Position numbers and translations under genes: made by a program. A DNA stretch of 29,603 nt from a virus. Shown here one piece after another: positions 1-29,587 of the stretch; the first letter of the stretch is position 1, and every line of letters starts with the position of its first letter. A model generated the notes under the pieces. That model ran no database searches and had not been told where the DNA came from. It worked only from the letters and a program-made list of their open reading frames with translations. Location of the stretch: positions 1-29,603 of the IMG/VR virus record IMGVR_UViG_3300021964_000343; one strand, 5' to 3'.

Positions 1-3000
1 GACAAACCAATAGTTTGGAATGAAACCGACACTTTACAAATTTTTGTCGATCAAGGTGATTTAAAAGTTAGACCATATGACTTTGGTACAGATGCTATTG
101 AAAGACAGCGTGTAGCAAATGCAGTATCAATGCTTGATGCTGACTTTGAGTACGGCTTACAGCCTACCAAGTGGCAGGCAATTGGTACAATGCGTGGTTA
201 TCCATCAACATATGAAGTTCCGGGTACAGATAAAGATGTAGCACAAGTGACTACTGATGCTTCGACAGGCAGTGAAGGCATTGGTCAATCATTAATTACT
301 GTAACAACTGTTGGACCACACGGATTTGAATTAGGCAAGCCTATTACAATCAGAGGATTAGATGGATCTGTTCAAGGTAACGGTCGTGCTGAAGGTACAT
401 TTATCATTAATACTATACCTACAACTAACACATTTACTTACTATGCTAAGGCAAAAGTAGGATCAAGTGCAGGGACAACACTACAAACATTTTATACCAT
501 TTTAAGAGGTGCAGATTTTTATACTGGTGCTGATATTCAAGGAGACACATCAGATTTTGTTGTTACTTCTCAAGGATCATCAGGATCATTTACTCTTGCT
601 CTTGGTTCGGATACAGGAGAAGATAGACTTGCTGTACAAGGAAATCAACCACCAATTGGTGCTCCACTACAATCAGCAACAGGAGGAATACCATTAGGTT
701 CTCAGGTTACAGGTAATGTTGGAGATGGCTCAACAATTGATACTCCTGTTTTGACAGCAGATGTTGCTCAAGGTTCGTTTACACTTCCAGTACAAGATTC
801 TGCGGCAGTTGAAATTGGTTCAGCAGTTGATCGAGGTGACGGTACCGCGGCTTTTGTAACCAATGTTGTAGGAAACGACTTAACAATTAGTAGTGCAACA
901 ACACGAACGCTTGTTGGTAATACAGTTCTTTACCAAGGATTATCAGGAACAAACGATCAACCAATCGGAAACGGTGCAACATTTGATATTACGAGAACAA
1001 CAGGTGTTTATGCAGTTGTGCTAAATGCAACTGGTCAAGATTATGAAATTGGTGATAGAATAAAAATTGATGGCGGCCAACTTGGCGGTGCAAGTATTAC
1101 TAACGATATTTTAATTACTATTGAAACTGTGGATACTGGAGGTGAAATTCAAACATTCGCTTTTACAGGTACAGGGTTTGATGGTAACGGATCATTTTTT
1201 GATGTACAAGCAGACTTCCAAGGTGGTACTGGTACTAATCCTATATTTGATATTACATACACAAACAATGCATATTCAGCAAGTGTAAGTTCTCCGGATA
1301 CATCGGGCGGCTATGCTATAGGTGATGTAATCCTAATTGACGGTTTTGAGTTAGGTGGGCAAACAGCAACCAACGACTGTAGATTAAGAGTGACAGCAGT
1401 GGGTGCTGGAGGAAGTATCACAAGTGTAGATGCAACAGGTACAGCAGTAGATGCAGATGTTAGTTATTCATCACCTACATTTACATCAACTACTATCAAC
1501 GGTGTAGACGCAGACTTTAATGTTCAAAGGATCGGAACTGTATATACAATAAGTGTTACTAATGCAGGAACAGGGTACCTGGCGGCGGAAACCTTTAACT
1601 TTCTTGGATCAGATTTAGGTGGTGTTGACGGCACAAACAATTTAACAGTAACAATTACAAGTGTTGATGTTAATGGTGCAATTACAGGAACAAGTGTTGC
1701 TGGTACAGCCGCAAACACCAAAGCCTATCCAGCAGTAACAACCGGTGTTAATCAAAATGGTAATGGAGCATTTTTCCAAGTTGACTTAGCAGGGGGTGTT
1801 TACACAGTATCTGTGCAAGACGCTGGACAAAATTATGCAGTAGATCAAGAATTTCTTATCAGAGGTACAGATGTTAGTGGTGAATCGCCGGCTAATGATA
1901 TTACAATTACTATTACAAGTGTAAATCCATCAGATGGCGGTATTTCAAATATTTCATTTACAGGTAGTGGAGCCACAGGTAGTGGAAGTTATCCAGAAAC
2001 AAGCGGTGATAACGATACACCTTCTGGAGCAAATGCAGTTTTTGATGTAACAAGAAGTGGCGGAGCATATACACTTGTTGTAGCAACCGACAATGGATCG
2101 GGATATGTAGTAGGTGATAGAATTATTATTCCAGGGGATCAACTTGGTGGCGCTACTCCTACAAACGATTTGACACTACGTTGTACAATTGAATCAACTG
2201 AAGGCGACTTTATTGGTATTGATTCATCAGGTACAGCAGTTGATGGAGAAACATTAACATTGTACAGTTCATTAACAATGTCTGAAGAAACTACACAAGC
2301 AATCAATCAAGCAACAGTTATTACCTACAGTGCATTGGCAAGCATAAGAATCACGTTTCAAACACCACACGGATTAGTGCCAGGAGATTCGTTTGCTGTT
2401 ACTATTGCATCAGATGATGGTATTAATAATCACAGTTTAGCGGCAGGTCCGTTTAGTGCTACAGCAGTTCCTGCAACTAATCAACTTGAATACCAATGTA
2501 GATCACCTGGATTTATTGATACTGGTACTAATAACGATTCGCCGGTGATTGGTAATGTTTATCCGAGACCAGATTCGTTCTTTATTCACAGACCATATGA
2601 TGGTGGTGTACAGTTAGGAACAGGCGGACCGCAACACGGTGCTCAAGCAATTAGACAGAGTAAGAAATACATTCGTTACCAGTCAGGTAAAGGTATTATG
2701 TACACAACTGGTGCTCTTTTTGCTCCAAGTTACAATATCCTTAATATTACAGCAGACGGCACAGCACCGGGGGCAATTATTACAATAACTACTGATGAAA
2801 CAGAACACGGTTTACAGGTCGGTGCAGGTATTAGAATAATTGGAGTATCAACTGTAGGCTATAATGGCGAATACACAGTTACTGATGTAAATGACGAAAA
2901 TGAATTTGAGATTGTTGCACAATCAGCATTAGGTAACACCACACCAGAACTTACGTCAGAATGTCAAGTATCACTTAGAACATTCCACGGCGCTACTGTG

Positions 3001-5052
3001 CGTTCAGGAGCATTTGATGACCAAAACGGAATCTTTTTTGAATATGACGGTACGCAGTTTAGTGCAGTACAAAGAACTGCTACATTGCAGTTAGCAGGTG
3101 TGGTTAATATTGATGTTGATTCAAATACTTGTACAGGAATAGGAACAAGATTTAGAGAGCAGTTGTCAGCAGGTGAAAGAATTGTCTTGAAAGGAATGAC
3201 ACATGTTGTATCTCAGGTTATTTCAAATACACTTATGTATCTTGCACCTGACTTCCGTGGTGTTACAGATGTTAGATCAAGCAAAATCTGTTTAGTTAGA
3301 GATAAGAAAACAGAACAAAAAGATTTTAATAGAGATAGAGGTGACGGCACAGGTCCAAGTGGATATAACATTGACATCAGTAAGATGCAGATGGTTGGAA
3401 TTCAATATTCATGGTATGGTGCTGGTTTTATTGATTATATGCTACGTGGTGCTGACGGTAACTTTGTGTTTATGCACAGAATGCGTAACTCAAACATTAA
3501 TACAGAAGCATTTATGAGAACAGGTAATATGCCTGTTAGATACGAAATTACTAACGAAGGTCCAGTTGGTAGACTTTCACAAGATATTGACGACTCTACA
3601 CAGACCGTTGGGTTAGTTGATGCATCGTTTATGCCACCTGAAGGCGGAATAGTATTAATTGATGCTGAAATGATACGTTTTACAGGAGTTAATGGAAAAA
3701 ATTTAACAGGATGTACACGCTCAAGTCCAATGACAAATTTTGCATCAGGATCTACAAGAACATACACAGGAGGTCCAGCGACAGCACACACAAGAAACAC
3801 TGGGGTTGTGTTGATTAGTAATACAGCATCGCCGGTTATTTCACACTGGGGTTCGGCGTTTATTACAGACGGTGGCTTTGATTCAGATCGTGGTTATTTG
3901 TTCTCATACAAATCTACAGGGGTTTCAATTACAACTACCAGAGCAACATCATTCTTACTACGTCTTGCACCAAGTGTAAGTAATGCACTTGTTGGTGATT
4001 TAGGTGAACGTGAACTATTAAACAGAGCACAGTTACTACTTGAAGGTCTTGAGATTACAACAGATACACCAGTATCAACAGATACCGGCGGTATTGTTAT
4101 TGAAGGGATTCTAAATCCACAAAACTATCCAGTCAATCCAGACGATGTTGGTTGGCAGGGATTATCAGGACTTGCACAAGGAGGACAACCAAGTTTTGCA
4201 CAGGTTGCACCAGGTGGTTCTACTAACTGGAACTCAGGTGATATACCGACAACGGCTCTTGTAACAACACAAGCACCTATTACTGCAAATGTAACAGCAG
4301 TTGATAGAGGCTATAGAAGTGGAAATACAAGTTGGGACAACACCCTTGACAACTCAAGAAATTACTTCTTTGTACAAGATAGTTTTTATCAAGCAAATAC
4401 TTCATTGTTTGAGATTGGTGTTAATGTGCAGAGTCAATCGGGCAATTATTTCCCAGGCGGAACTACACTAACTGGAGTATCGTCATACACATATGGTTCA
4501 AGAAGTTTAGGAAGTCTAAGACTTGTGTTTACAAGTAATAGACCAACTGTTGATATTGTAAATACTAATGTTACTATTGTTCTAAGTAAGATATTCAAAG
4601 AAGCACCAACAAACAATATATTCTTCGAAAAAGCAGATTATGACACTGCTGGTGTTGTTCAAGGAACTACCGTAAGTGATAGCAGGTTCCCAGCAGGTAC
4701 ACAGGTTACTTCTGTTAAATTAGAAACATATGGTTCAACTGAATATTATAATGTTACATTTAACCAAACATCAGATAATAGTGCAATAACACCAGGAGTC
4801 ACAGACATTGAATTCCAATTTGTTCAGCCACCTTATGCACAACCAGGAGAAACAATCTTCTCATTCATTGCACAACCTGGAGAAAGATCAACATTAGATC
4901 TATCATTTATTAAAGAATTAACTAATACTACATTAGGTGGTAGAGGTACATTCCCGAATGGGCCAGACGTGTTAGCAATTAACGTATTTAAAACTTCTGG
5001 AGCGGCAATTAGTTCAAATATTGTACTGCGTTGGTCGGAAGCACAAGCCTAA
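1..5052 (+). CDS. Giant virion structural protein (5' partial), probably tail/baseplate
   Basis: The reading frame is open from the first base and ends at TAA 5050-5052, so the start lies outside the window; the Met at 130 is internal, because good coding sequence precedes it (for example a segment reading VRPYDFGTDAIERQRVANA). At least 1683 residues are present. Several modules are visible: beta-rich segments with a PHGF/EHGL-type motif at about nt 295-470, 2341-2510 and 2740-2935; five tandem ~88-residue Gly/Asp/Thr-rich repeats at nt 967-2250; and a conserved-looking region near nt 3370-3580 (SWYGAGFIDYMLRGADG, MRTGNMPVRYEITNEG). There is no signal peptide or membrane segment. Size, composition and neighbouring neck and tail genes point to a virion protein of the kind found in marine T4-like phages. 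Baseplate or tail attachment is inferred. It could correspond to a T4 wedge or fibre-connecting protein, but I cannot match it to one. Confidence 0.8.
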   Translation, partial: DKPIVWNETDTLQIFVDQGDLKVRPYDFGTDAIERQRVANAVSMLDADFEYGLQPTKWQAIGTMRGYPSTYEVPGTDKDVAQVTTDASTGSEGIGQSLITVTTVGPHGFELGKPITIRGLDGSVQGNGRAEGTFIINTIPTTNTFTYYAKAKVGSSAGTTLQTFYTILRGADFYTGADIQGDTSDFVVTSQGSSGSFTLALGSDTGEDRLAVQGNQPPIGAPLQSATGGIPLGSQVTGNVGDGSTIDTPVLTADVAQGSFTLPVQDSAAVEIGSAVDRGDGTAAFVTNVVGNDLTISSATTRTLVGNTVLYQGLSGTNDQPIGNGATFDITRTTGVYAVVLNATGQDYEIGDRIKIDGGQLGGASITNDILITIETVDTGGEIQTFAFTGTGFDGNGSFFDVQADFQGGTGTNPIFDITYTNNAYSASVSSPDTSGGYAIGDVILIDGFELGGQTATNDCRLRVTAVGAGGSITSVDATGTAVDADVSYSSPTFTSTTINGVDADFNVQRIGTVYTISVTNAGTGYLAAETFNFLGSDLGGVDGTNNLTVTITSVDVNGAITGTSVAGTAANTKAYPAVTTGVNQNGNGAFFQVDLAGGVYTVSVQDAGQNYAVDQEFLIRGTDVSGESPANDITITITSVNPSDGGISNISFTGSGATGSGSYPETSGDNDTPSGANAVFDVTRSGGAYTLVVATDNGSGYVVGDRIIIPGDQLGGATPTNDLTLRCTIESTEGDFIGIDSSGTAVDGETLTLYSSLTMSEETTQAINQATVITYSALASIRITFQTPHGLVPGDSFAVTIASDDGINNHSLAAGPFSATAVPATNQLEYQCRSPGFIDTGTNNDSPVIGNVYPRPDSFFIHRPYDGGVQLGTGGPQHGAQAIRQSKKYIRYQSGKGIMYTTGALFAPSYNILNITADGTAPGAIITITTDETEHGLQVGAGIRIIGVSTVGYNGEYTVTDVNDENEFEIVAQSALGNTTPELTSECQVSLRTFHGATVRSGAFDDQNGIFFEYDGTQFSAVQRTATLQLAGVVNIDVDSNTCTGIGTRFREQLSAGERIVLKGMTHVVSQVISNTLMYLAPDFRGVTDVRSSKICLVRDKKTEQKDFNRDRGDGTGPSGYNIDISKMQMVGIQYSWYGAGFIDYMLRGADGNFVFMHRMRNSNINTEAFMRTGNMPVRYEITNEGPVGRLSQDIDDSTQTVGLVDASFMPPEGGIVLIDAEMIRFTGVNGKNLTGCTRSSPMTNFASGSTRTYTGGPATAHTRNTGVVLISNTASPVISHWGSAFITDGGFDSDRGYLFSYKSTGVSITTTRATSFLLRLAPSVSNALVGDLGERELLNRAQLLLEGLEITTDTPVSTDTGGIVIEGILNPQNYPVNPDDVGWQGLSGLAQGGQPSFAQVAPGGSTNWNSGDIPTTALVTTQAPITANVTAVDRGYRSGNTSWDNTLDNSRNYFFVQDSFYQANTSLFEIGVNVQSQSGNYFPGGTTLTGVSSYTYGSRSLGSLRLVFTSNRPTVDIVNTNVTIVLSKIFKEAPTNNIFFEKADYDTAGVVQGTTVSDSRFPAGTQVTSVKLETYGSTEYYNVTFNQTSDNSAITPGVTDIEFQFVQPPYAQPGETIFSFIAQPGERSTLDLSFIKELTNTTLGGRGTFPNGPDVLAINVFKTSGAAISSNIVLRWSEAQA
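967..2250 (+). repeat. Five tandem ~88-residue protein repeats in the giant structural protein
   Basis: Five diverged copies start with a phenylalanine-centred strand (codons at 982, 1246, 1516, 1774 and 2041). Spacing is 264, 270, 258 and 267 bases, always a multiple of three. Each copy reads roughly F-D-[IV]-x-[RY]-x(2)-G-x-Y, then a G-x(2)-Y strand, then [GD]-D-x-[IV]-x-I-x-G-x(2)-L-G-G, then T-N-D followed by an alternating hydrophobic strand and S/T-G-[ST]-A. The copies are clear at protein level but diverged in DNA, so they are old duplications. They look like stacked beta-sandwich or fibre-type domains. Confidence 0.85.
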
Positions 5053-5450
5053 GGTGTTGGCGGCGGATTATTTTTCTTAATTACGTCTTTTTGACTATCA
5101 CCTGGAATAAGTCTATAATTATCTTCAACTGAATCAGGTGTGCTTACTTCACTTACCGAACTACTGTCTTCAAGAGCAATAAGTTGATGCGGTTGCAGTG
5201 GCGGATTGTGCCAAGTGTCACCTGCTTTAAGTTCTTTAGAGTATAATACAGCATCTTTTGTGTCAATCCATTTAACTTCAAAGCGTCCACTGTTAACAAA
5301 CCACGTTTCGTCTTTTTCTCTGTGAAAATGCATCGAAAATTTATTACCTGCTTTTTCAAATACCATAATTTTACCACAATACTTGTCATTGGTTGCCCAT
5401 ATTAGTTCATAACCCCAACCTTTTTCAACTTTACCTTCGAGCCTGCTCAT
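5049..5450 (-). CDS. Cupin-domain protein, sugar-isomerase-like
   Basis: The 133-residue protein is a single small cupin barrel. Cupin motif 1 is visible as HFHREKDETWFVNSGRFEV (His-x-His, then Glu), and motif 2 as AGDTWHNPPLQPHQL with the expected second His. The fold is typical of single-domain cupins found in polysaccharide gene clusters and related to the cupin part of mannose-6-phosphate isomerases. The substrate is unknown. The tail from about residue 95 is hydrophilic and ends in a Pro-rich NNPPPTP. Its ATG overlaps the stop of the upstream gene as ATGA, suggesting translational coupling. Its stop overlaps the stop of the convergent structural gene by four bases, leaving no room for an intergenic terminator. 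As the last gene after hldE and hldD, a role in sugar-nucleotide or glycan metabolism is the likely inference. Confidence 0.75.
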   Translation of the reverse strand: MSRLEGKVEKGWGYELIWATNDKYCGKIMVFEKAGNKFSMHFHREKDETWFVNSGRFEVKWIDTKDAVLYSKELKAGDTWHNPPLQPHQLIALEDSSSVSEVSTPDSVEDNYRLIPGDSQKDVIKKNNPPPTP

Positions 5451-6148
5451 TTTTTACTCCATTTGTCTTTAAATTTTTTGTATGCTCCGCGAAATTTGCT
5501 TTGAAAAATCATATTGCTTACAAAACTTGCTTCATATTTGTTTTTGTCTTCGTCTTGCACTGTAGTTTCCAAGTCTGCAAGTCTAATAGGAACATACATT
5601 GCTAAAGGTGTACCTTTTTCTATTAAAAATTCACCTTCTTTTTTAATTAGTAGTTGTTGATTGATCTGATGGCTCCACTCGGTATGGGTTACGCCTGGCA
5701 TACATTCAAAATACTCGTTAAAATCGTAAAACATTGGTAGTTGCATCATTGCCCAACCCGGACTTGTACGTACCCGCCATGGACAGTCTGTTTTTGCAAC
5801 ACATAAAAACTTATCTTTGACATTTTTTGGTAAATGGTCTCTAAATTGATTGCCATAATGCAGACTCATTGTAAAATCTTCATTACTCGAATACCATGCG
5901 AAATTATCTTTATCAACTTTTATATGAAAATCACACCACATAGTAACTACATAGGCATTTTTATAATAATCAACAAAACCTGGGCAATTTTTAAATGTAC
6001 CTTTATCCTTAAAATTTGTCTCATCAAGGAATTTTGGCATTTCTTTAAACCAGGCTGGTATAAACTTAGTGGCGTTTTGTATTGGCTCTACTTTTGTCAA
6101 CCCAGGAACAACACTCCACCATTCAACTTTGCAATTATTTTGACTCAT
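5447..6148 (-). CDS. Conserved-looking protein of unknown function in the heptose cassette
   Basis: The 233-residue protein is not recognised. It is rich in Trp, Phe, Tyr and His (WWSVVPG near the start, VVTMWCDFHI near residue 70, SPGWAMMQLPMFYDFNEYF near 130, THTEWSHQINQQLL near 155). The second half, with GTPLAMYVPIRL, could be a beta-barrel. No signal peptide or membrane helix is seen. Its start lies inside hldD (14-base overlap) and its stop overlaps the cupin start, so it belongs to the same transcript. That context suggests a step in modifying a sugar or glycan, possibly a metal-dependent oxygenase-like or binding protein, but this is only a guess from residue composition. The reading frame is intact and compositionally like its neighbours. 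Confidence 0.7.
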   Translation of the reverse strand: MSQNNCKVEWWSVVPGLTKVEPIQNATKFIPAWFKEMPKFLDETNFKDKGTFKNCPGFVDYYKNAYVVTMWCDFHIKVDKDNFAWYSSNEDFTMSLHYGNQFRDHLPKNVKDKFLCVAKTDCPWRVRTSPGWAMMQLPMFYDFNEYFECMPGVTHTEWSHQINQQLLIKKEGEFLIEKGTPLAMYVPIRLADLETTVQDEDKNKYEASFVSNMIFQSKFRGAYKKFKDKWSKK

Positions 6149-6959
6149 GTATCCACTCTTGCGGTCTTATAAAAGTATGATTAACATGTGATAGTGTTTT
6201 TGTCATATCGGCACATGTATATTCTTGATAGTGATTTTTAAGATTTTTTGGCATAGGTACATATTGTATTCTTGAATCGTATTTTTTAGCAATGGTTAAT
6301 GCAATGTCTTTGAATGATGTTGCATGACCGGTTCCTAAGTTAAAAATGCCACTTACATCTTCCTCTAACATTTTTTCATGTATTAAACAAACATCTTGAA
6401 CACTAATAAAGTCACGTAAGTAGTTTTCACTGTTTTCAAACAATGTAATCACACCATCTTCTTTAGCCTGTTTGGTAAATTTTGTTACTGGACTTGCTTG
6501 ATTACCTTTGTGTTCTTCATAATTACCGTATACATTAAAATATCTAAATCCTTGGATATTAATTTTAAAGTCATTAGAGTATTCATTTATCCATCTATCA
6601 ATTAGATACTTACTCCATGCATATGGATTCTGAGGGAAGCATTCGCTATCTTCTCTAAAACCATCGTTACCAGGTCCGTACACACTTGCTGAACTTGAAT
6701 ACTGTAAAGTTGTGCCCATCATGTCGCAAATTTCTATAAGTTTCATAGTCCATTCATAATTTTGCTTGAGTATTTTTTCAACATTAGTTTCAGTAGTGCT
6801 TGAAATAGCACCGCAATGGATTACTCGATCATACTGCTGAGCATCCGGAAATTTATTTTCTTGCCACTCCCATCCTTCAACATCATGACCTTTATATTTT
6901 AAATATGAAGCAAGATTTTTACCTATAAATCCTTCATGTCCTGTAACTAAAATTTTCAT
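6135..6959 (-). CDS. hldD: ADP-L-glycero-D-manno-heptose-6-epimerase-like SDR enzyme
   Basis: This 274-residue NAD(P)-dependent short-chain epimerase resembles bacterial HldD (RfaD), which inverts C6 of ADP-D-glycero-D-manno-heptose. A Rossmann motif G-x2-G-x2-G is at residues 7-13. The HldD-like HCGAISSTTETN segment is at 48-59, the Ser patch and SVYGPG at 88-97, and the catalytic Tyr113-x3-Lys117 follows. HldD-type blocks continue with GFRYFNVYGNYEEHKGNQAS (137-156), RDFISVQDV (182-190) and FNLGTGHATSF (206-216). These match HldD better than generic UDP-hexose epimerases. It is somewhat shorter than the E. coli enzyme (310 residues). The start overlaps the hldE stop as ATGA. The adjacent HldE homologue makes the assignment strong, although a related ADP-sugar product is possible. 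Confidence 0.88.
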   Translation of the reverse strand: MKILVTGHEGFIGKNLASYLKYKGHDVEGWEWQENKFPDAQQYDRVIHCGAISSTTETNVEKILKQNYEWTMKLIEICDMMGTTLQYSSSASVYGPGNDGFREDSECFPQNPYAWSKYLIDRWINEYSNDFKINIQGFRYFNVYGNYEEHKGNQASPVTKFTKQAKEDGVITLFENSENYLRDFISVQDVCLIHEKMLEEDVSGIFNLGTGHATSFKDIALTIAKKYDSRIQYVPMPKNLKNHYQEYTCADMTKTLSHVNHTFIRPQEWIHESK

Positions 6960-8185
6960 TTTATTCTCTCTATAATACTTGTAGTCGAAACTCCTTCAAT
7001 AGTTGGAAAAATTTCTACTGGATAGTTCTCATGACCAACTATTGTTTCGATAGTATAGTCTCCGCCTTTAACAATCAAGTTAGGCTTTACCTTATTAATT
7101 GCGTTTATAGGAGTGTCCTCGTCAAATATTATTACATCATCTACCCAAGGTAATAATTTTAGATTCATTTGCCTTTGCAATTGATTATTAATTGGACGAT
7201 TGTTTCCTTTAAGTCTTTTTGTACTTGCATCACTGTTGATACCTACAATTAACTTTTGACCTTTTGATTTTGCAAACTTTAATAGTTTAAAATGTCCTTC
7301 GTGTAGTATATCAAATACACCGTTTGTCCAAACAATACCTTTATCTAAGTCTGCAAATGTAACTGGGTGTACTCCTCTTTTTTCAACGTTCCTTGCACTT
7401 GCATAGCAGGCTAAATTACAAGCATCTGGAATGGACATTTCTTTTATAATATGTCCATATACAAGAACTGCTAAAAACGTATCACCTGCACCAGTCACGT
7501 CAGCGACTTCTCGAACTTCTTCTTTAAAATGCCAATAGTTGTCTTTATTAATAGCATATACACCGTTAGCGCCATCTGTAACAACTAACCATTTCCAGCC
7601 ATATTCTTTTAACTTTGCCTGTGCAGTGTTAATATCAAAAATACCAAACCAATTAACATACTCTGACATGTTAGGTTTTACAAGAAAGCAATCTTTATAT
7701 AGTTCTGGTTGTTGTTTAGGATCTACAAATACTTTGCTATTTTTTAAATCATTCATTAATTTATTTGTAACAACACCTTTGTTATAATCGCTAATAATTA
7801 CAATTTGAGAATTTGCATTCAGGTTGTCTATACTTCCTTGATATTTTTCTTCTCTATCCCAGCGAACTATATGTTGCCCGCCCTGACCAACCAATCTTGT
7901 TTTTGTAGTAGTGACAGAATGATCAAACTGAATATGATTTGTAATAGTATTGTAATTTTTTAATAATTCTATAATCTTGTAACCTTCTTTATCACTACTA
8001 ACTGCACCATATAACGATATTTCGATATGAAGATTTGCTAAGTTTGATGCAAGATTACCTGCACCTCCAATACTAAATGATTGAGTATTTTCTTTTAGCA
8101 CCGGAATGGGGGCTTCAGGAGACATTCTATTTGCTGTGCCGATGATCCAGCGATCTAACATGATATCGCCAATGACTTTAATCAT
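6956..8185 (-). CDS. hldE: Bifunctional heptose kinase / ADP-heptose synthase-like protein
   Basis: The 409-residue protein fuses two domains in the same order as bacterial HldE (RfaE). Residues 1-275 are a PfkB-type sugar kinase: GDIMLDRWIIG and SPEAPIPVL near the start, a GGAGNLASNLA block at 40-50, and the anion-hole/catalytic DVTGAGDTF at 229-237 with Asp235. Residues 284-409 are a nucleotidyltransferase: TNGVFDILHEGH with the HxGH motif at 295-298, NSDASTKRLKG at 317-327, VKGGDY at 372-377 and EGVSTTSIIERIK at the end. In bacteria HldE phosphorylates heptose-7-phosphate at C1 and later transfers AMP to make ADP-heptose. It is shorter than the E. coli protein (477 residues), mainly in the linker and loops, but the key motifs are intact. 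One base separates its ATG from the Nudix stop. Confidence 0.92.
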   Translation of the reverse strand: MIKVIGDIMLDRWIIGTANRMSPEAPIPVLKENTQSFSIGGAGNLASNLANLHIEISLYGAVSSDKEGYKIIELLKNYNTITNHIQFDHSVTTTKTRLVGQGGQHIVRWDREEKYQGSIDNLNANSQIVIISDYNKGVVTNKLMNDLKNSKVFVDPKQQPELYKDCFLVKPNMSEYVNWFGIFDINTAQAKLKEYGWKWLVVTDGANGVYAINKDNYWHFKEEVREVADVTGAGDTFLAVLVYGHIIKEMSIPDACNLACYASARNVEKRGVHPVTFADLDKGIVWTNGVFDILHEGHFKLLKFAKSKGQKLIVGINSDASTKRLKGNNRPINNQLQRQMNLKLLPWVDDVIIFDEDTPINAINKVKPNLIVKGGDYTIETIVGHENYPVEIFPTIEGVSTTSIIERIK

Positions 8186-22682: not shown

Positions 22683-24995
22683 ATGAAGAACTTAGAAAAA
22701 ATTGCAGAAGAACTGTTCAATAAGATTCGAGGTAGATATCCTTCAATCACATTAGGTGATGAAGAATCAACTATTACAAATGTGCCGAATAAAGCACGGT
22801 TCTTTGATTTTGATTTCAAAGAAGGTGTAAAAGTAAATGTAACATTAGACACAGAAAGTCTAACAATACTTTACAACAATGAACTTATTGAAAATTCTCC
22901 AGATACGATTAAAAGTAACTGGTACAATTTTATGAAGGAAATGAGAACCTTTGCTAAGAAACGCATGTTAAAATTTGACACAAGAGACATAACAAAAACA
23001 AATTTAGATAAAAGAGACTATCAATATCTTTCTACAAATAGACCCGGAGATGAAACAATGAGTGAAAGTAAAATGTACGGAACTTCAAAGACAAGTTTCC
23101 AAGACATTGGCAATGCAAAAATGATTGTCAAGCATAGAGGTCCTGTTGATTTTGAAAATCCAGCAGGCAGAACACAACGTATCGACAGCATCTACATAGA
23201 GAGTGCTGACGGCGAAAGATTTAAATATCCGTTCAGACACCTAAATGGTGCAAGAGCAATGGCTACACACGTAAGCGAAGGTGGCAATCAGTACGACTCA
23301 TTTGGAAAACACATCGTTTCACTCAGCGAAGAACTTTCTAAATTGCGTACATTCAAAACTTACATGAACAGATCAAATGTAATGGCAGAGGGTCTTGCTG
23401 GTTACATGGACATTGTTAATGAAAGAATTGAAACTGTTAAAGAAACAGTCTTTAAATTACAAAGACCAACACACTACAAAGAAGCGTTTGAATCATTTGA
23501 AGAAACAGTGATGGAAGAAGTACCAGAAGATGTTTCATCAAATTGGATTGATGAATTAACTATTCGTCAGTTCAACGAAGATCTAAAAAGTGTATTTCCT
23601 TATATCTACAATCTTGTTAAAGAAAACACAAAGCCTACAGAAATTGGTCCAGAAGATTTGTTAGGCGAGTTTGATGGTCCAGATGAAACAGAAGATGGCG
23701 GCAAGAAGGAACAATTACAAGCCTGGTATGACAAATACAGCAAGTATGAAAGCGATAACAGTGATGTCTTACCAAAAGGAATGTTCAAAGGCTACATGGA
23801 CTCTGGTATTCTAACAGACGGTGTAGAAGAGAATGAATTCGCAAACTTAGTTAAACATTTTGGCGGCGACAGAGACGAAGCAGAAGACAAAGTTTTCAAC
23901 GACGAGTACGAGAAATTTTTACCCATTACAACTGCAATGCGAGAAGAGTTTATGAAAATAATGGGTGATCTTGACGAAGACAAATGCAGAGAAGCGGCTA
24001 ACATTTTAGGTGGTGAAAGTATGGACATGGAAGATGCGTATGCTTCACACTTAGACAATATAGTTGCTACATCAAAACACGAGCAAGGTCCGGAAGTTGA
24101 CGAAGCAGATGCCATGAGCACAGGCACTGTAGCAGTGGGTAAAAAAGGCAAGACCAGAAGAGCCACAGGTATTAATGACAACCCCTATGATCACAACGAT
24201 GGCGAAGATGAAACAGCATTGGCAAATGCCGCACTGTGGAACATGAAAGATGTATATCAAACCATAATGGCCGGTGAAGAACTTTCAGAAGACGATATAT
24301 TCTCATATGGAGACCTTGTTCAATACTTGGAAATGACAGATATGCCTGATCATTACAGCAAGTTTTGGGACTTGGTTACAGATGCTATTAACAAAGCAGG
24401 TGGATTTGCAGGACAGGGTGCTTCACTTGAAGTGGATAAGAACATTGCACCAAAGATCAAATCACTGTATCAACAATTCAAAGCCGAAACAAAGGATATC
24501 GCAGGTGTCAAAGAAGGCAACGAGTTCGCACAAAAGGTACGTGAACTAAAAGCCAAAGGTGCTAAGCCAGGAACCAAATTCAAAACATCAGACGGTGAAG
24601 AACATACACTTGAAGATGCTATTAGATTAGCAGGACTACAAGTTGAAGACTTTTGGTCAGAAGAAGAACTAATGGCAGAAAAAGGCGCAGATGACGAAGA
24701 AGATGACGACACTATGGATGTCAAAATTGACAAAGATGGTGCTATTTCAAAAGCAGACGCTCCAGATGATTTACATGACAAAGAAGAAGAATTACCTTTA
24801 GATGAGTTTATCAAAGGACACTTTGATTATACTACTAATCAATTCCCTAAAGGTGAAACGGCTGTTATGACAGCGGTTGAAAAGAAGTATGGTGATGACA
24901 GTATCAAAGATGCTATGAACATCATGAAGGAATTGGTTACAAACCAAGATGAAGAAATGTCAAGAATTAAAACTTTAGCAGGTTTGGCTCACTAA
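22683..24995 (+). CDS. Large acidic virion-type protein of unknown function
   Basis: This 770-residue protein is not recognised by name. The N-terminal ~300 residues seem folded: IAEELFNKIRGRYPSITLGD, then FFDFDFKEGVKVNVTLDTES, NWYNFMKEMRTFAKKRML, and a conserved-looking RHLNGARAMATHVSEGG at about 183-199. The rest alternates acidic linkers (residues about 335-350 and 650-690) with helices, for example EYEKFLPITTAMREEFMKIM. A C-terminal segment of DEEMSRIKTLAGLAH ends the protein. It lacks signal peptides and membrane helices. Its late promoter, position behind gp17 and size suggest a virion or internal head protein. No Shine-Dalgarno precedes the ATG, consistent with leaderless start. Confidence 0.7.
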   Translation: MKNLEKIAEELFNKIRGRYPSITLGDEESTITNVPNKARFFDFDFKEGVKVNVTLDTESLTILYNNELIENSPDTIKSNWYNFMKEMRTFAKKRMLKFDTRDITKTNLDKRDYQYLSTNRPGDETMSESKMYGTSKTSFQDIGNAKMIVKHRGPVDFENPAGRTQRIDSIYIESADGERFKYPFRHLNGARAMATHVSEGGNQYDSFGKHIVSLSEELSKLRTFKTYMNRSNVMAEGLAGYMDIVNERIETVKETVFKLQRPTHYKEAFESFEETVMEEVPEDVSSNWIDELTIRQFNEDLKSVFPYIYNLVKENTKPTEIGPEDLLGEFDGPDETEDGGKKEQLQAWYDKYSKYESDNSDVLPKGMFKGYMDSGILTDGVEENEFANLVKHFGGDRDEAEDKVFNDEYEKFLPITTAMREEFMKIMGDLDEDKCREAANILGGESMDMEDAYASHLDNIVATSKHEQGPEVDEADAMSTGTVAVGKKGKTRRATGINDNPYDHNDGEDETALANAALWNMKDVYQTIMAGEELSEDDIFSYGDLVQYLEMTDMPDHYSKFWDLVTDAINKAGGFAGQGASLEVDKNIAPKIKSLYQQFKAETKDIAGVKEGNEFAQKVRELKAKGAKPGTKFKTSDGEEHTLEDAIRLAGLQVEDFWSEEELMAEKGADDEEDDDTMDVKIDKDGAISKADAPDDLHDKEEELPLDEFIKGHFDYTTNQFPKGETAVMTAVEKKYGDDSIKDAMNIMKELVTNQDEEMSRIKTLAGLAH

Positions 24996-26167: not shown

Positions 26168-27262
26168 ATGGCTAATAAAGCATTTGACGTTTCTAAGTTT
26201 CGTAAAAACTTAACTAAATCCATCACAGGCATGAGTAGTGGCTTCAATGACCCTACTGATTGGATTAGCACAGGTAACTATGCCTTAAACTATCTTATCT
26301 CAGGAGACTTTCACAAAGGTGTTCCGTTAGGTAAGGTTACTGTTTTTGCAGGAGAATCGGGTGCAGGTAAATCATATATCTGTGCAGGTAACATTGTAAA
26401 GGCGGCACAAGATCAAGGTATCTTTGTAGTACTAATTGACTCAGAGAATGCACTTGACGAAACTTGGTTACAAGCACTTGATGTAGACACATCGGAAGAC
26501 AAATTACTTAAACTTAATATGTCAATGATTGATGATGTTGCTAAAACAGTATCAACATTTATGGCAGACTACAAGGAAATGGCTGAAGAAGAACGTCCTA
26601 AAGTATTGTTTGTAATTGATAGTTTGGGTATGTTGTTAACACCTACAGATGTAGATCAGTTTAACAAAGGTGATATGAAGGGTGACATGGGTAGAAAACC
26701 TAAGGCACTTACATCACTTGTTCGTAACACTGTTAACATGATTGGCTCACACAATGTAGGACTTGTATGTACTAACCATACGTATGCATCGCAAGATATG
26801 TTTGATCCAGATGACAAAATCTCAGGCGGTCAAGGATTTATCTATGCATCATCTATTGTAGTTGCAATGAAGAAATTAAAACTAAAAGAAGATGAAGACG
26901 GTAACAAAGTTACTGATGTACGTGGTATTAGAGCGGGTTGTAAGGTAATGAAAACACGTTACGCAAAACCGTTCGAAGGCGTACAGGTAAAAATTCCATA
27001 TGAAACAGGTATGAATCCTTACAGCGGACTTGTAGACTTATTTGAGAAAAAAGGCATTTTATCAAAAGATGGTAATAGACTTAAATATGTTTCAAACACA
27101 GGTGAAGAAATCAAAGAATATCGTAAAGTCTGGGAAGCAGGCGGCGATGTACTTGATCAAGTCATGAAAGACTTTAGTAACCTTGCTGAAGAGGTAACTA
27201 CCAATGATACTGAAACAGAAACAGTAACTGAAAAAGTTGTAGAACCTATTACCGAGGAGTAA
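26168..27262 (+). CDS. uvsX: RecA-like recombinase UvsX
   Basis: The 364-residue protein is a phage RecA/UvsX. The Walker A GESGAGKS is at residues 62-69, followed by a VVLIDSENALDETW strand (the RecA acidic motif), Walker-B-type VLFVIDSLGMLLT, and NVGLVCTNHTY. Loop-2-type ISGGQGFIYASS and the final KVMKTRYAKPFEGVQVKIPY complete the core. UvsX forms filaments on DNA coated with gp32 and promotes strand exchange, helped by UvsY encoded two genes on. It is close to T4 UvsX in length (391). The tail after ~335 is acidic and disordered. The AAAGGAG site precedes the ATG. Confidence 0.97.
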   Translation: MANKAFDVSKFRKNLTKSITGMSSGFNDPTDWISTGNYALNYLISGDFHKGVPLGKVTVFAGESGAGKSYICAGNIVKAAQDQGIFVVLIDSENALDETWLQALDVDTSEDKLLKLNMSMIDDVAKTVSTFMADYKEMAEEERPKVLFVIDSLGMLLTPTDVDQFNKGDMKGDMGRKPKALTSLVRNTVNMIGSHNVGLVCTNHTYASQDMFDPDDKISGGQGFIYASSIVVAMKKLKLKEDEDGNKVTDVRGIRAGCKVMKTRYAKPFEGVQVKIPYETGMNPYSGLVDLFEKKGILSKDGNRLKYVSNTGEEIKEYRKVWEAGGDVLDQVMKDFSNLAEEVTTNDTETETVTEKVVEPITEE

Positions 27263-27499: not shown

Positions 27500-27952
27500 A
27501 TGTGGTATAGCAAAATATCAAAAGATATAAGCAAGATACCAGATGCTTTGCAATACTACGAAGACGAACTGGTTGAAGCGAAGAAAGAGTGTCGAATCTA
27601 CGGCAACATCGAGAAGGCCGCGGCAAGTATGCCCGGTCTTGTCGAACATCGCTTCAACCAACTTCAAGAACTTGAAGCAATTCTTGAATACTTAAACATC
27701 GAGTTACGTAGACTAAGAAGTTCTTTCTTTAGAAAATATCTTGAAAACTACCAAAGAGCATTGAGTAGTCGTGATGTTGAAAAATACGTAGACGGCGAAG
27801 CAGATGTTGTTGATATGGAGAAAATTATCAACGAGTTTGCCCTGATGCGTAATAAGTGGTTAGGAGTCTCCAAAGGCTTGGATCAAAAGCAATGGCAACT
27901 TACTAACATTACAAAATTACGTGTAGCAGGAATGGAAGATGCCTCGATTTAA
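27500..27952 (+). CDS. uvsY: Recombination mediator UvsY
   Basis: The ATG at 27500 (MWYSKISKDISKIPDALQYY) is preferred over an upstream in-frame TTG at 27488 that overlaps the previous coding end. The 150-residue protein matches UvsY in length (T4: 137) and pattern: ELVEAKKECRIYGNIEKAAA, then HRFNQLQELEAILEYLNIEL, a basic RRLRSSFFRKYLENYQRAL, and a long C-terminal helix ending in the residues WQLTNITKLRVAGMEDASI. UvsY helps UvsX load on gp32-coated single-stranded DNA. The glycosyltransferase gene starts inside its last codons. Confidence 0.92.
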   Translation: MWYSKISKDISKIPDALQYYEDELVEAKKECRIYGNIEKAAASMPGLVEHRFNQLQELEAILEYLNIELRRLRSSFFRKYLENYQRALSSRDVEKYVDGEADVVDMEKIINEFALMRNKWLGVSKGLDQKQWQLTNITKLRVAGMEDASI

Positions 27953-28631
27953 AACTAAAATTATTTGTTTAAAAGAAAACAATCATTCAGTTCAAATTGC
28001 AAAAGACTCTGTAACACAAGCAGAAAAATTTAATATACCTGTTGAATATTTTGATGCTATACACGGCAATGAGTATGTAAAACATTGTACAGAGTTAGGT
28101 GTTACAAGAGTTGGAAAAGTGAAAAAAGGACGTAAAGGAGTAATAGGTTGCTTCCTGAGTCATCTTTCACTATGGAAGCAATGTGCCAGAGATGGCGTTC
28201 CTTATATTATTCTTGAACACGATGGGTACTTTGTTAGAGAACTCCCAGACGACATTTGGAGTAAATTTGATCATGTTTGTAAACTTGACAATTTTGATCC
28301 ATTTAGCAAACAATACGACAGAGAAGTAGAAAAGAGTTTAACTAAAGATGTTGTAATTATTGATTATCATAATCCTCATGCAAAAGGTAAAAAAGTATTA
28401 AATATTGTTGGTAATTATTTTAGAGGTGCATGGAGTTACATTATTAAACCTGAGGCCGCTAATATATTAATTAATTTTGTAAACGAGTATGGTATGATTG
28501 TGGCGGCTGATCAACAAATTGGATCTAACTTATTAGAACTTAAAACTACAAACGTACCTATAGCAAGACTTCATCCGTTTTATTCAATTGGAACTAATAT
28601 TAACTCAGAAAGTCTTACTAAGAAAATATAA
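27939..28631 (+). CDS. GT25-type glycosyltransferase
   Basis: The 230-residue protein has the family 25 hallmark RKGVIGCFLSHLSLWKQCAR, then PYIILEHDGYFVREL. GT25 enzymes add hexoses to lipopolysaccharide in bacteria. In typical members the sequence reads LEDDA; here it is LEHDG, so the metal-binding acid pattern is altered and activity is uncertain. A C-terminal GNYFRGAWSYIIKPEAANIL block fits the fold, and ADQQIG is a likely acceptor-side motif. The ATG lies 14 bases inside uvsY, with AGGA just upstream. The product may modify host surface sugars or virion proteins. It is not next to the heptose genes, but both sets concern sugars. Confidence 0.8.
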   Translation: MPRFKTKIICLKENNHSVQIAKDSVTQAEKFNIPVEYFDAIHGNEYVKHCTELGVTRVGKVKKGRKGVIGCFLSHLSLWKQCARDGVPYIILEHDGYFVRELPDDIWSKFDHVCKLDNFDPFSKQYDREVEKSLTKDVVIIDYHNPHAKGKKVLNIVGNYFRGAWSYIIKPEAANILINFVNEYGMIVAADQQIGSNLLELKTTNVPIARLHPFYSIGTNINSESLTKKI

Positions 28632-28639
28632 GGAACATA

Positions 28640-29587
28640 ATGGCTAACTTACAAAAAAGAGATGACTGGTTTGTAGATTATCACGAGATACCACAGTTAG
28701 GTATTAAAGGAAAACGTGGTCTTAATGACAGAATTAAATTTTATGATCCTAATGACTTTGTAGGATCTACAGTAATTGATCTTGGATGTAATATGGGTCA
28801 GATGTCTTTTCAAGCAAAAGCCTGGGGAGCATCAAAAGTTACAGGAGTTGAATTTGATTGGACTGCTGTACAGAAAGCAAATCAAATCAATGCCCAACTT
28901 AACTTAGATATTAATTTTATTGTAGATGATTTAGACAGTAATTTTTTATGGACCAGTTTACCTAATTTTGATGTAGTAATGTTTCTTGCTGTAATTGACA
29001 CTAAGGAATTAGAAAATAGATACGGAATTTTATCTAAAGCCTGCCGCAAAACAAATAAAGTAATGTACTTTGAAGGACATGGAAAACAACCACCAAGTAG
29101 GTATATTAAAAATATTATTGATTATACTGACTTCAGTGAAATTAAATATTTAGGAGAAACTCCTGTTACCCGTCCTTTTTTTAGATGTACAAGAAATAAA
29201 TTAACAACTGACGAAGCAGTTCAAGTTATTTTAAATTCTAAATATAATAAAATTGCTGTTGTTGGAAAATCAAAGGCTGGTAAGACTACTATAAGAAAAC
29301 AATTTGCTCCCCTAAACAATAACAAATATGCAATAATTGACGATCTTGTTGTTTGGAATGAACAACCTGCCCGCAAAATTAATAAAGCAGAAATACAAAA
29401 TTTTAATAAATTTGTTTTATTTGATTATAGAGGAATAGAATATTATCCAGATGTTGATGTTGTAATTTTTGTTCATCCTAATGAAAATTTACTTGGACAA
29501 TCTCGAAATCCTGCAAAGCCGTTAGTAAGTCCAACAATAAAACATTTTAACAATGTTAAAGAAGTTTATACTGTGATGTCTTATTAA
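28640..29587 (+). CDS. Class I SAM methyltransferase fused to a P-loop NTPase-like domain
   Basis: The 315-residue protein has two domains in one intact frame. Residues 1-185: a Rossmann-type methyltransferase with motif I VIDLGCNMGQMSF (45-57), the acidic end of strand two at VEFD (70-73) and a VVMFLAVID strand at 112-120. Residues 200-315: a strand then a P-loop GKSKAGKT (209-216), IIDD at 232-235, FVLFDYRG (258-265) as a possible Walker B, and VVIFVHPNENLLGQS. The latter resembles a small kinase core. The target of methylation and the phosphoryl acceptor are unknown; a sugar or nucleotide is plausible next to a glycosyltransferase. An AAGGA site precedes the ATG. A fused single gene of this type is uncommon to my knowledge. 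Confidence 0.78.
   Translation: MANLQKRDDWFVDYHEIPQLGIKGKRGLNDRIKFYDPNDFVGSTVIDLGCNMGQMSFQAKAWGASKVTGVEFDWTAVQKANQINAQLNLDINFIVDDLDSNFLWTSLPNFDVVMFLAVIDTKELENRYGILSKACRKTNKVMYFEGHGKQPPSRYIKNIIDYTDFSEIKYLGETPVTRPFFRCTRNKLTTDEAVQVILNSKYNKIAVVGKSKAGKTTIRKQFAPLNNNKYAIIDDLVVWNEQPARKINKAEIQNFNKFVLFDYRGIEYYPDVDVVIFVHPNENLLGQSRNPAKPLVSPTIKHFNNVKEVYTVMSY

What the first reader, a model, noticed from the sequence alone, without database searches (positions are those of the whole stretch)
28640..29587. Methyltransferase fused to a P-loop NTPase in one phage gene
The intact frame joins a SAM-binding Rossmann domain (VIDLGCNMGQ at residues 45-54) to a second domain with a GKSKAGKT P-loop (209-216) and Walker-B-like FDYRG. 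A co-linear link between methyl transfer and phosphoryl transfer, next to a GT25 glycosyltransferase, could be a bifunctional enzyme for decorating a sugar, nucleotide or lipid head group. I do not know a described system with this architecture.
Basis: partly seen in the sequence, partly recalled or inferred. Interest (0 to 1): 0.72.

Follow-up and report, generated by a model that had tools for sequence, protein, structure and literature searches.

The report
Fused methyltransferase and kinase-like sugar-decorating protein
A marine phage gene really does join a methyl-transferring domain to an ATP-binding, kinase-like domain, and its relatives in other phages and in planctomycete bacteria sit among sugar-chain genes, so it is probably an undescribed kind of enzyme that decorates or caps surface sugars.

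Summary
ORF 28640-29587 (315 aa, intact) joins a class I SAM methyltransferase (Methyltransf_31, E 2.8e-9) to a roughly 120-aa C-terminal domain with an invariant Walker A. Both domains occur in one polypeptide in 31 of 31 full-length viral copies (21 distinct proteins) and in 7 of 199 planctomycete genomes sampled, where a conserved Wzy-Wzx-fusion-GT2-GT4 polysaccharide operon holds the gene. No split pair was found. Two viral relatives are fused to glycosyltransferases (GT4; a TIGR04414 heptosyltransferase). One contig is a natural domain swap, the C-domain replaced between unchanged flanks. Both halves are under purifying selection.

The model's best fold match is WbdD, a methyltransferase-kinase that caps O-antigen with methyl phosphate, by a narrow margin. 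Invariant Arg178 aligns with WbdD's phosphate-binding Arg203; WbdD's His132/His133 are not conserved. WbdD's kinase half has a protein-kinase fold; here it is P-loop.

I read it as a new P-loop variant of the glycan methyltransferase-kinase architecture. The glycan role is well supported; the P-loop fold is supported but close to no known family; kinase activity and methylation of phosphate are inferred. 'No described system' is wrong as a concept (WbdD, Klebsiella O7 ORF6) but probably right for the P-loop version.

The parts
28640..29587 (+). Fused methyltransferase / P-loop gene, 315 aa, whole ORF with stop
28763..29068 (+). N-terminal class I SAM methyltransferase core (residues 42-143 matched to PF13847); SAM motif VIDLGCNMGQ at residues 45-54
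29171..29173 (+). Codon of invariant Arg178, which aligns with WbdD Arg203 (phosphate binding in WbdD)
   Evidence: PMC3482155
29216..29584 (+). C-terminal P-loop domain, residues 193-315
29264..29287 (+). Walker A GKSKAGKT, residues 209-216
29339..29344 (+). Invariant DD, residues 234-235, at the end of predicted strand 2; candidate substrate or magnesium ligand
29420..29431 (+). FDYR, residues 261-264, at the end of predicted strand 3; Walker-B-like position
27939..28631 (+). Adjacent GT25 glycosyltransferase; a homologue is in 26 of 30 full-length viral loci
5049..8185 (-). Sugar cassette elsewhere in the window: cupin, 233-aa protein, HldD-like epimerase, HldE-like kinase/adenylyltransferase; probable context, not proven partner

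Best explanation
The gene encodes a bifunctional glycan-decorating enzyme. Its C-terminal P-loop domain binds ATP (Walker A; DD at the end of strand 2 as substrate or magnesium ligand; FD at the end of strand 3; a flexible basic lid between strands 4 and 5) and phosphorylates a hydroxyl of a sugar on a growing or lipid-linked oligosaccharide. Its N-terminal SAM domain then methylates, most likely the new phosphate, giving a methyl phosphate mark or cap as WbdD does. The phage would use it with GT25, pyruvyl-transferase and nucleotide-sugar enzymes to remodel a surface glycan of the host or to glycosylate its own proteins. Shown: the fusion, the two folds (the second only at superfamily level), motif conservation, purifying selection on both halves, and the glycan setting in phages and bacteria. 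Inferred: ATP use, phosphoryl transfer, the acceptor, and phosphate as methyl acceptor. Step estimates: acts on glycans 0.9; C-domain is a true phosphotransferase 0.6; methyl goes onto that phosphate 0.4-0.45.
For: Fusion in 31/31 full-length viral copies and in planctomycetes. Conserved Wzy-Wzx-fusion-GT2-GT4 operon in bacteria. Fusions to GT4 and to a TIGR04414 heptosyltransferase. Phage cassettes with pyruvyl transferase, CDP-sugar and heptose enzymes. Best fold match WbdD. R26, R31 and R178 align with WbdD R31, R36 and R203. P-loop fold of the C-domain. Purifying selection on both halves and natural C-domain swap. Precedent: two unrelated kinase folds already joined to methyltransferases for methyl phosphate ends (PMC3482155, PMC11231755).
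Against: WbdD leads other methyltransferases in the fold search only slightly (4e-9 against 1e-8). WbdD His132 and His133, essential there, are D120 and T121 here. The C-domain is short and no kinase family matches better than E 0.025 by fold. MT-only relatives keep Arg178 (L055, L107), so that residue is not tied to the P-loop. There is no coiled coil as in known chain terminators, and the bacterial operons look Wzx/Wzy-type, which does not need a terminator.
Confidence: 0.42

Rival explanations
1. The methyltransferase methylates a sugar hydroxyl, as E. coli O8 WbdD does, and the P-loop half phosphorylates a different position or substrate; no methyl phosphate is made.
For: His132/His133 of the phosphate pocket are missing. 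MT-only relatives exist beside pyruvyl-transferase and FkbM genes. Sugar O-methylation is common in such loci.
Against: Invariant Arg178 at the place of WbdD Arg203, which the WbdD paper reports absent from other known sugar methyltransferases (PMC3482155). The strict fusion suggests coupled steps.
Confidence: 0.25
2. The P-loop half is not a kinase: it binds ATP or GTP to regulate, or to hold the enzyme in a complex with glycosyltransferases, and only the methyltransferase is catalytic.
For: Small domain with weak fold matches spread over kinases, GTPases and helicases; one relative (L050) has lost FDYR. It evolves faster than the N-domain.
Against: DD invariant in all viral and planctomycete copies, strand order and lid-like basic segment as in small P-loop kinases, no GTPase switch or helicase motifs noticed.
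Confidence: 0.22
3. The enzyme works on nucleic acid: phage DNA hypermodification (glycosyltransferases, P-loop kinases, 2OG oxygenases, radical SAM enzymes) or Hen1/Pnkp-like RNA end repair.
For: 2OG-Fe(II) oxygenase and radical SAM genes lie near in some relatives. The first sequence hit was the RNA methylphosphate capping enzyme MePCE (E 1e-4) and bacterial Hen1 is among the fold hits. DNA-modification P-loop kinases are known in phages (my knowledge).
Against: Chromosomal planctomycete copies sit in a Wzx/Wzy-type polysaccharide operon. Fusions are to GT4 and heptosyltransferase domains. The MePCE match covers only the SAM motif. No base hydroxymethylase or RNA ligase turned up among the neighbours scanned.
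Confidence: 0.06

Closest known systems
WbdD of E. coli O9a / Klebsiella O3 (PDB 4azs; PMC3482155)
   Same: N-terminal class I methyltransferase followed directly by an ATP-using domain; glycan locus; best fold match; DLGCxxG SAM loop; Arg31, Arg36 and Arg203 equivalents invariant
   Different: Kinase half is protein-kinase fold in WbdD, P-loop here; His132/His133 not conserved; no coiled coil; about 18% identity over the aligned part
ORF6 of Klebsiella pneumoniae O7 (PMC11231755)
   Same: Methyltransferase plus a previously unannotated kinase in one chain, methyl phosphate product, glycosyltransferase modules on the same chain as in L050 and L052
   Different: Kinase resembles aminoglycoside kinases (AmiN), methyltransferase closest to CgnL; has coiled coil and a carbohydrate-binding module; direct comparison with ORF6 sequence not made here
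Small P-loop kinases (shikimate kinase, gluconokinase, APS kinase, adenylate kinase 6)
   Same: Walker A, acidic residues after strand 2, order of strands, lid-like segment; among the fold or profile hits
   Different: No significant sequence match and no fold match better than E 0.025; domain only about 120 aa
TIGR04290 family methyltransferases
   Same: Best NCBIfam match of the N-domain (40 bits, E 2.3e-10)
   Different: Far below the family cut-off of 300 bits; match limited to the SAM region; no P-loop domain in that model

Membership tests
Class I SAM-dependent methyltransferase | Rossmann fold with D/E-x-G-x-x-x-G SAM loop | tested here: met
   Pfam above cut-off; fold search; DxGCNxG in 31/31
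P-loop NTPase superfamily | Walker A GxxxxGK[ST] after strand 1 in an alpha/beta fold | tested here: met
   31/31 copies; strand E204-208 then helix H215-226 in the model; Foldseek hits mostly P-loop proteins but only E 0.025 or weaker in the PDB
P-loop kinase (any named family) | Significant match to a kinase family or fold | tested here: inconclusive
   Weak hits to several kinases, none significant
P-loop kinase (any named family) | Phosphoryl transfer activity | not testable with these tools
   Needs an assay
WbdD family | Methyltransferase phosphate pocket: Arg203, His132, His133 | tested here: inconclusive
   Arg203 equivalent invariant (R178), both His replaced by D120/T121
WbdD family | Protein-kinase-fold kinase domain | tested here: not met
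   C-domain is P-loop
WbdD family | C-terminal coiled coil that recruits the polymerase | tested here: not met
   Protein ends with the last strand of the P-loop domain at residue 315
Surface polysaccharide locus component | Conserved linkage to flippase, polymerase or glycosyltransferases | tested here: met
   Planctomycete operons; phage cassettes and fusions

The most novel reading that the evidence does not exclude
A third, independently built class of glycan methyl phosphate enzyme, using a P-loop kinase in place of the protein-kinase or aminoglycoside-kinase folds of WbdD and O7 ORF6. It is shared between marine phages and planctomycetes, and in phages the kinase half can be swapped by recombination, which would change the sugar that is marked.
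Probability: 0.38. Interest if true: 0.75.

Novelty: new variant of a known kind. Interest (0 to 1): 0.6.

Why it matters
Methyltransferase-kinase fusions set the length or end group of some bacterial O-antigens, and I found only two kinase folds described for them. A P-loop version in phages would suggest that viruses carry their own tools to mark surface or virion glycans, which could affect adsorption, superinfection exclusion or virion stability. It would also give a function to an unannotated domain in planctomycete exopolysaccharide operons. The natural domain swap makes a test possible: does the C-domain set the acceptor?

Tried and rejected
tblastn of the whole protein in 50,697 phage records: no match; of each half alone: only E 0.4 or worse; of the divergent relatives L049 and L050: nothing beyond one short methyltransferase-only stretch. 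So no annotated phage record in that collection carries a detectable relative. Plasmids: only SAM-motif matches to TIGR04290 methyltransferases. First GTDB scan with the close alignment: nothing; a more divergent alignment then found planctomycetes. Search for a stand-alone P-loop domain in viral contigs: only fused copies confirmed. Idea that the ParB-like N-domain of L055/L107 is an alternative kinase: a PDB sequence search gave no support, so it stays a hunch. MePCE as a clue to phosphate methylation: rejected as evidence, the match is confined to the SAM motif. GTPase reading (best PDB profile hit GTPase Der, E 2e-4): rejected, the match rests mainly on the P-loop itself. Assembly chimera for L013: judged unlikely, the swap lies between two L038-like flanks and the C-domain is 91%, not 100%, identical to the nearest donor. 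Literature searches for a methyltransferase plus P-loop kinase in polysaccharide synthesis, or a phage methyl phosphate enzyme, found no paper.

Full report
What is there. The window is a fragment of a virus record with T4-type genes: tail sheath, tail sheath stabiliser and terminase, UvsX, UvsY and a single-strand DNA binding protein. Its UvsX is closest to those of jumbo phages such as Atu_ph07, Phosso and Vibrio phage 2.275.O (about 67% identity). The gene at 28640-29587 is the last complete gene. It follows a GT25 gene (PF01755, E 3.4e-16), and an ATG follows its stop codon directly.

The ORF is intact and the quoted motifs are at the quoted residues. Residues 42-143 match a class I SAM methyltransferase. 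Residues 193-315 are claimed by no family, but hold a Walker A invariant in every relative, an invariant DD pair 13-16 residues or so after it, FDYR in 30 of 31, and a C-terminal YTV or YAV. AlphaFold gives pLDDT 85 and pTM 0.85 for the whole protein and pLDDT 86 for the C-domain alone. Foldseek matches of the C-domain are mostly P-loop proteins (shikimate kinase, thymidylate kinase, gluconokinase, APS kinase, helicases), but none is better than E 0.025 in the PDB or 0.009 among viral models. I take it as a real but reduced or divergent P-loop domain, not a member of a named kinase family.

The fusion is not an error. IMG/VR scans gave 35 contigs. In 30 the gene is full length; with the window this makes 31 copies, 21 distinct proteins, all fused and without internal stops. 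Four are cut by contig ends. One (L055) is a methyltransferase with an unrelated N-terminal region and no P-loop. A search with the C-domain alone confirmed only fused copies. dN/dS is well below 1 in both halves (window against L001: 0.060 and 0.091), so both are maintained.

Bacterial relatives. A divergent alignment found Rhodopirellula and Stieleria genomes. Seven of 199 sampled genomes of that family have the full-length fusion, with GRSxAGKS, LDDV and DYRA motifs and a basic, lid-like segment before the last strand. In the loci where I could read the whole neighbourhood (L072, L073, L108, L109, L110) the gene follows a Wzy_C gene and a Wzx-type flippase and precedes GT2 and GT4 genes, with neighbours down to 50-65% identity. 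This is the strongest evidence for a role in polysaccharide assembly, because it does not depend on phage gene mixing.

Phage neighbourhoods say the same. In uvsX-linked relatives the gene lies in a cassette just downstream of uvsY; in jumbo phages 2.275.O and Phosso no such cassette is annotated there. A GT25 homologue is in 26 of 30 loci (many are near-identical, so these are not 26 independent cases). Other members are a pyruvyl transferase (L001, L045), RfbF and RfbG above cut-off and an RfbH-like enzyme below it (L045), a PseB-like dehydratase and RmlD (L043), GT2 genes (L051), and 2OG oxygenases and a radical SAM enzyme (L037). L052 (the longer fetch of L025) carries one 1454-aa chain with a GT4-like part, the methyltransferase, the P-loop, a second methyltransferase and a TIGR04414 heptosyltransferase. 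L050 carries methyltransferase, P-loop and GT4, with a separate TIGR04414 gene downstream. The window itself has a minus-strand cassette with HldE-like and HldD-like ADP-heptose enzymes, best matches but below NCBI's cut-offs. A heptose is therefore a reasonable guess for the acceptor or its neighbour; that is inference.

How it may work. The full model's best PDB match is WbdD (4azs, E 4e-9), ahead of other methyltransferases by a small margin. WbdD phosphorylates the terminal mannose of O9a and then methylates the phosphate; Arg203, His132, His133 and Tyr16 are needed for methylation (PMC3482155). The WbdD letters I used as a probe were confirmed against the PDB file. Invariant R26, R31 and R178 align with WbdD R31, R36 and R203 in all three MAFFT modes, while no His is found at the place of His132/133, where D120/T121 appear to fall (the last point is my reading of the strand-4 motif, since MAFFT places gaps there). 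hhalign supports the Arg26-Asn29-Arg31 match but did not align the end of the domain. The phosphate pocket is thus half conserved; invariant His147 in YFEGHG could stand in, but I could not test it. Klebsiella O7 ORF6 shows that a second, unrelated kinase fold has been joined to a methyltransferase for the same product, in some orthologues with glycosyltransferase modules (PMC11231755). A P-loop version would be a third. In planctomycetes the setting looks Wzx/Wzy-type, so decoration of a repeat unit is more likely there than chain termination.

The domain swap. L013 has an N-domain 99.5% identical to L038 but only 53% in the C-domain, and a C-domain 91% identical to L004 but 65% in the N-domain; the crossover lies near the Walker A strand. 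Its upstream GT25 (78.5% to L038, 48.9% to L004) and downstream gene (95.3% to L038, 60.9% to L004) are L038-like. This is replacement of the P-loop half inside the gene. With the lower conservation of that half (mean identity 49% against 66%) it suggests that the C-domain carries specificity.

Known and new. Membership of the WbdD family is not claimed: the kinase fold and the coiled coil were tested and not met. It may still work like WbdD. I rate it a new variant of a known kind.

Limits. No activity is shown. The kinase assignment rests on motif order and precedent. Most viral relatives are closely related marine contigs. The bacterial sample comes from one family.

Noticed in passing
window 5049-8185 (-): Sugar cassette with a cupin, a 233-aa protein without family, an HldD-like epimerase (TIGR02197, 251 bits, cut-off 275) and an HldE-like kinase/adenylyltransferase (NF008454, E 3e-91, below cut-off): a phage-borne partial ADP-heptose pathway.
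   Followed up: partly
L013:3032-4048: Natural chimera: the P-loop half was replaced between flanks that stay L038-like, with the crossover near the Walker A strand.
   Followed up: yes
L055:7437-8495 and L107: A related methyltransferase without P-loop, with an N-terminal region containing a DGNHR/HGNHR ParB-like motif, in a phage contig and in a planctomycete genome; the phage copy is followed by a methyltransferase-pyruvyl transferase fusion and an FkbM-like gene.
   Followed up: partly
L052:5944-10308: A 1454-aa protein with GT4-like part, methyltransferase, P-loop, second methyltransferase and TIGR04414 heptosyltransferase in one chain, about 1 kb upstream of a T4-type portal gene.
   Followed up: partly
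L045:9667-13465: Phage contig with the start of the CDP-dideoxyhexose pathway: RfbF and RfbG above cut-off, RfbH-like aminotransferase below cut-off, epimerase.
   Followed up: no
window 26168-27262: UvsX is most similar (about 67%) to those of jumbo phages of 349-490 kb, so this contig may be a piece of a jumbo phage.
   Followed up: partly
window 130-5052 and 22683-24995: Two long ORFs (1640 and 770 aa) without any Pfam match; relatives of the second are only partly alignable between close phages.
   Followed up: no
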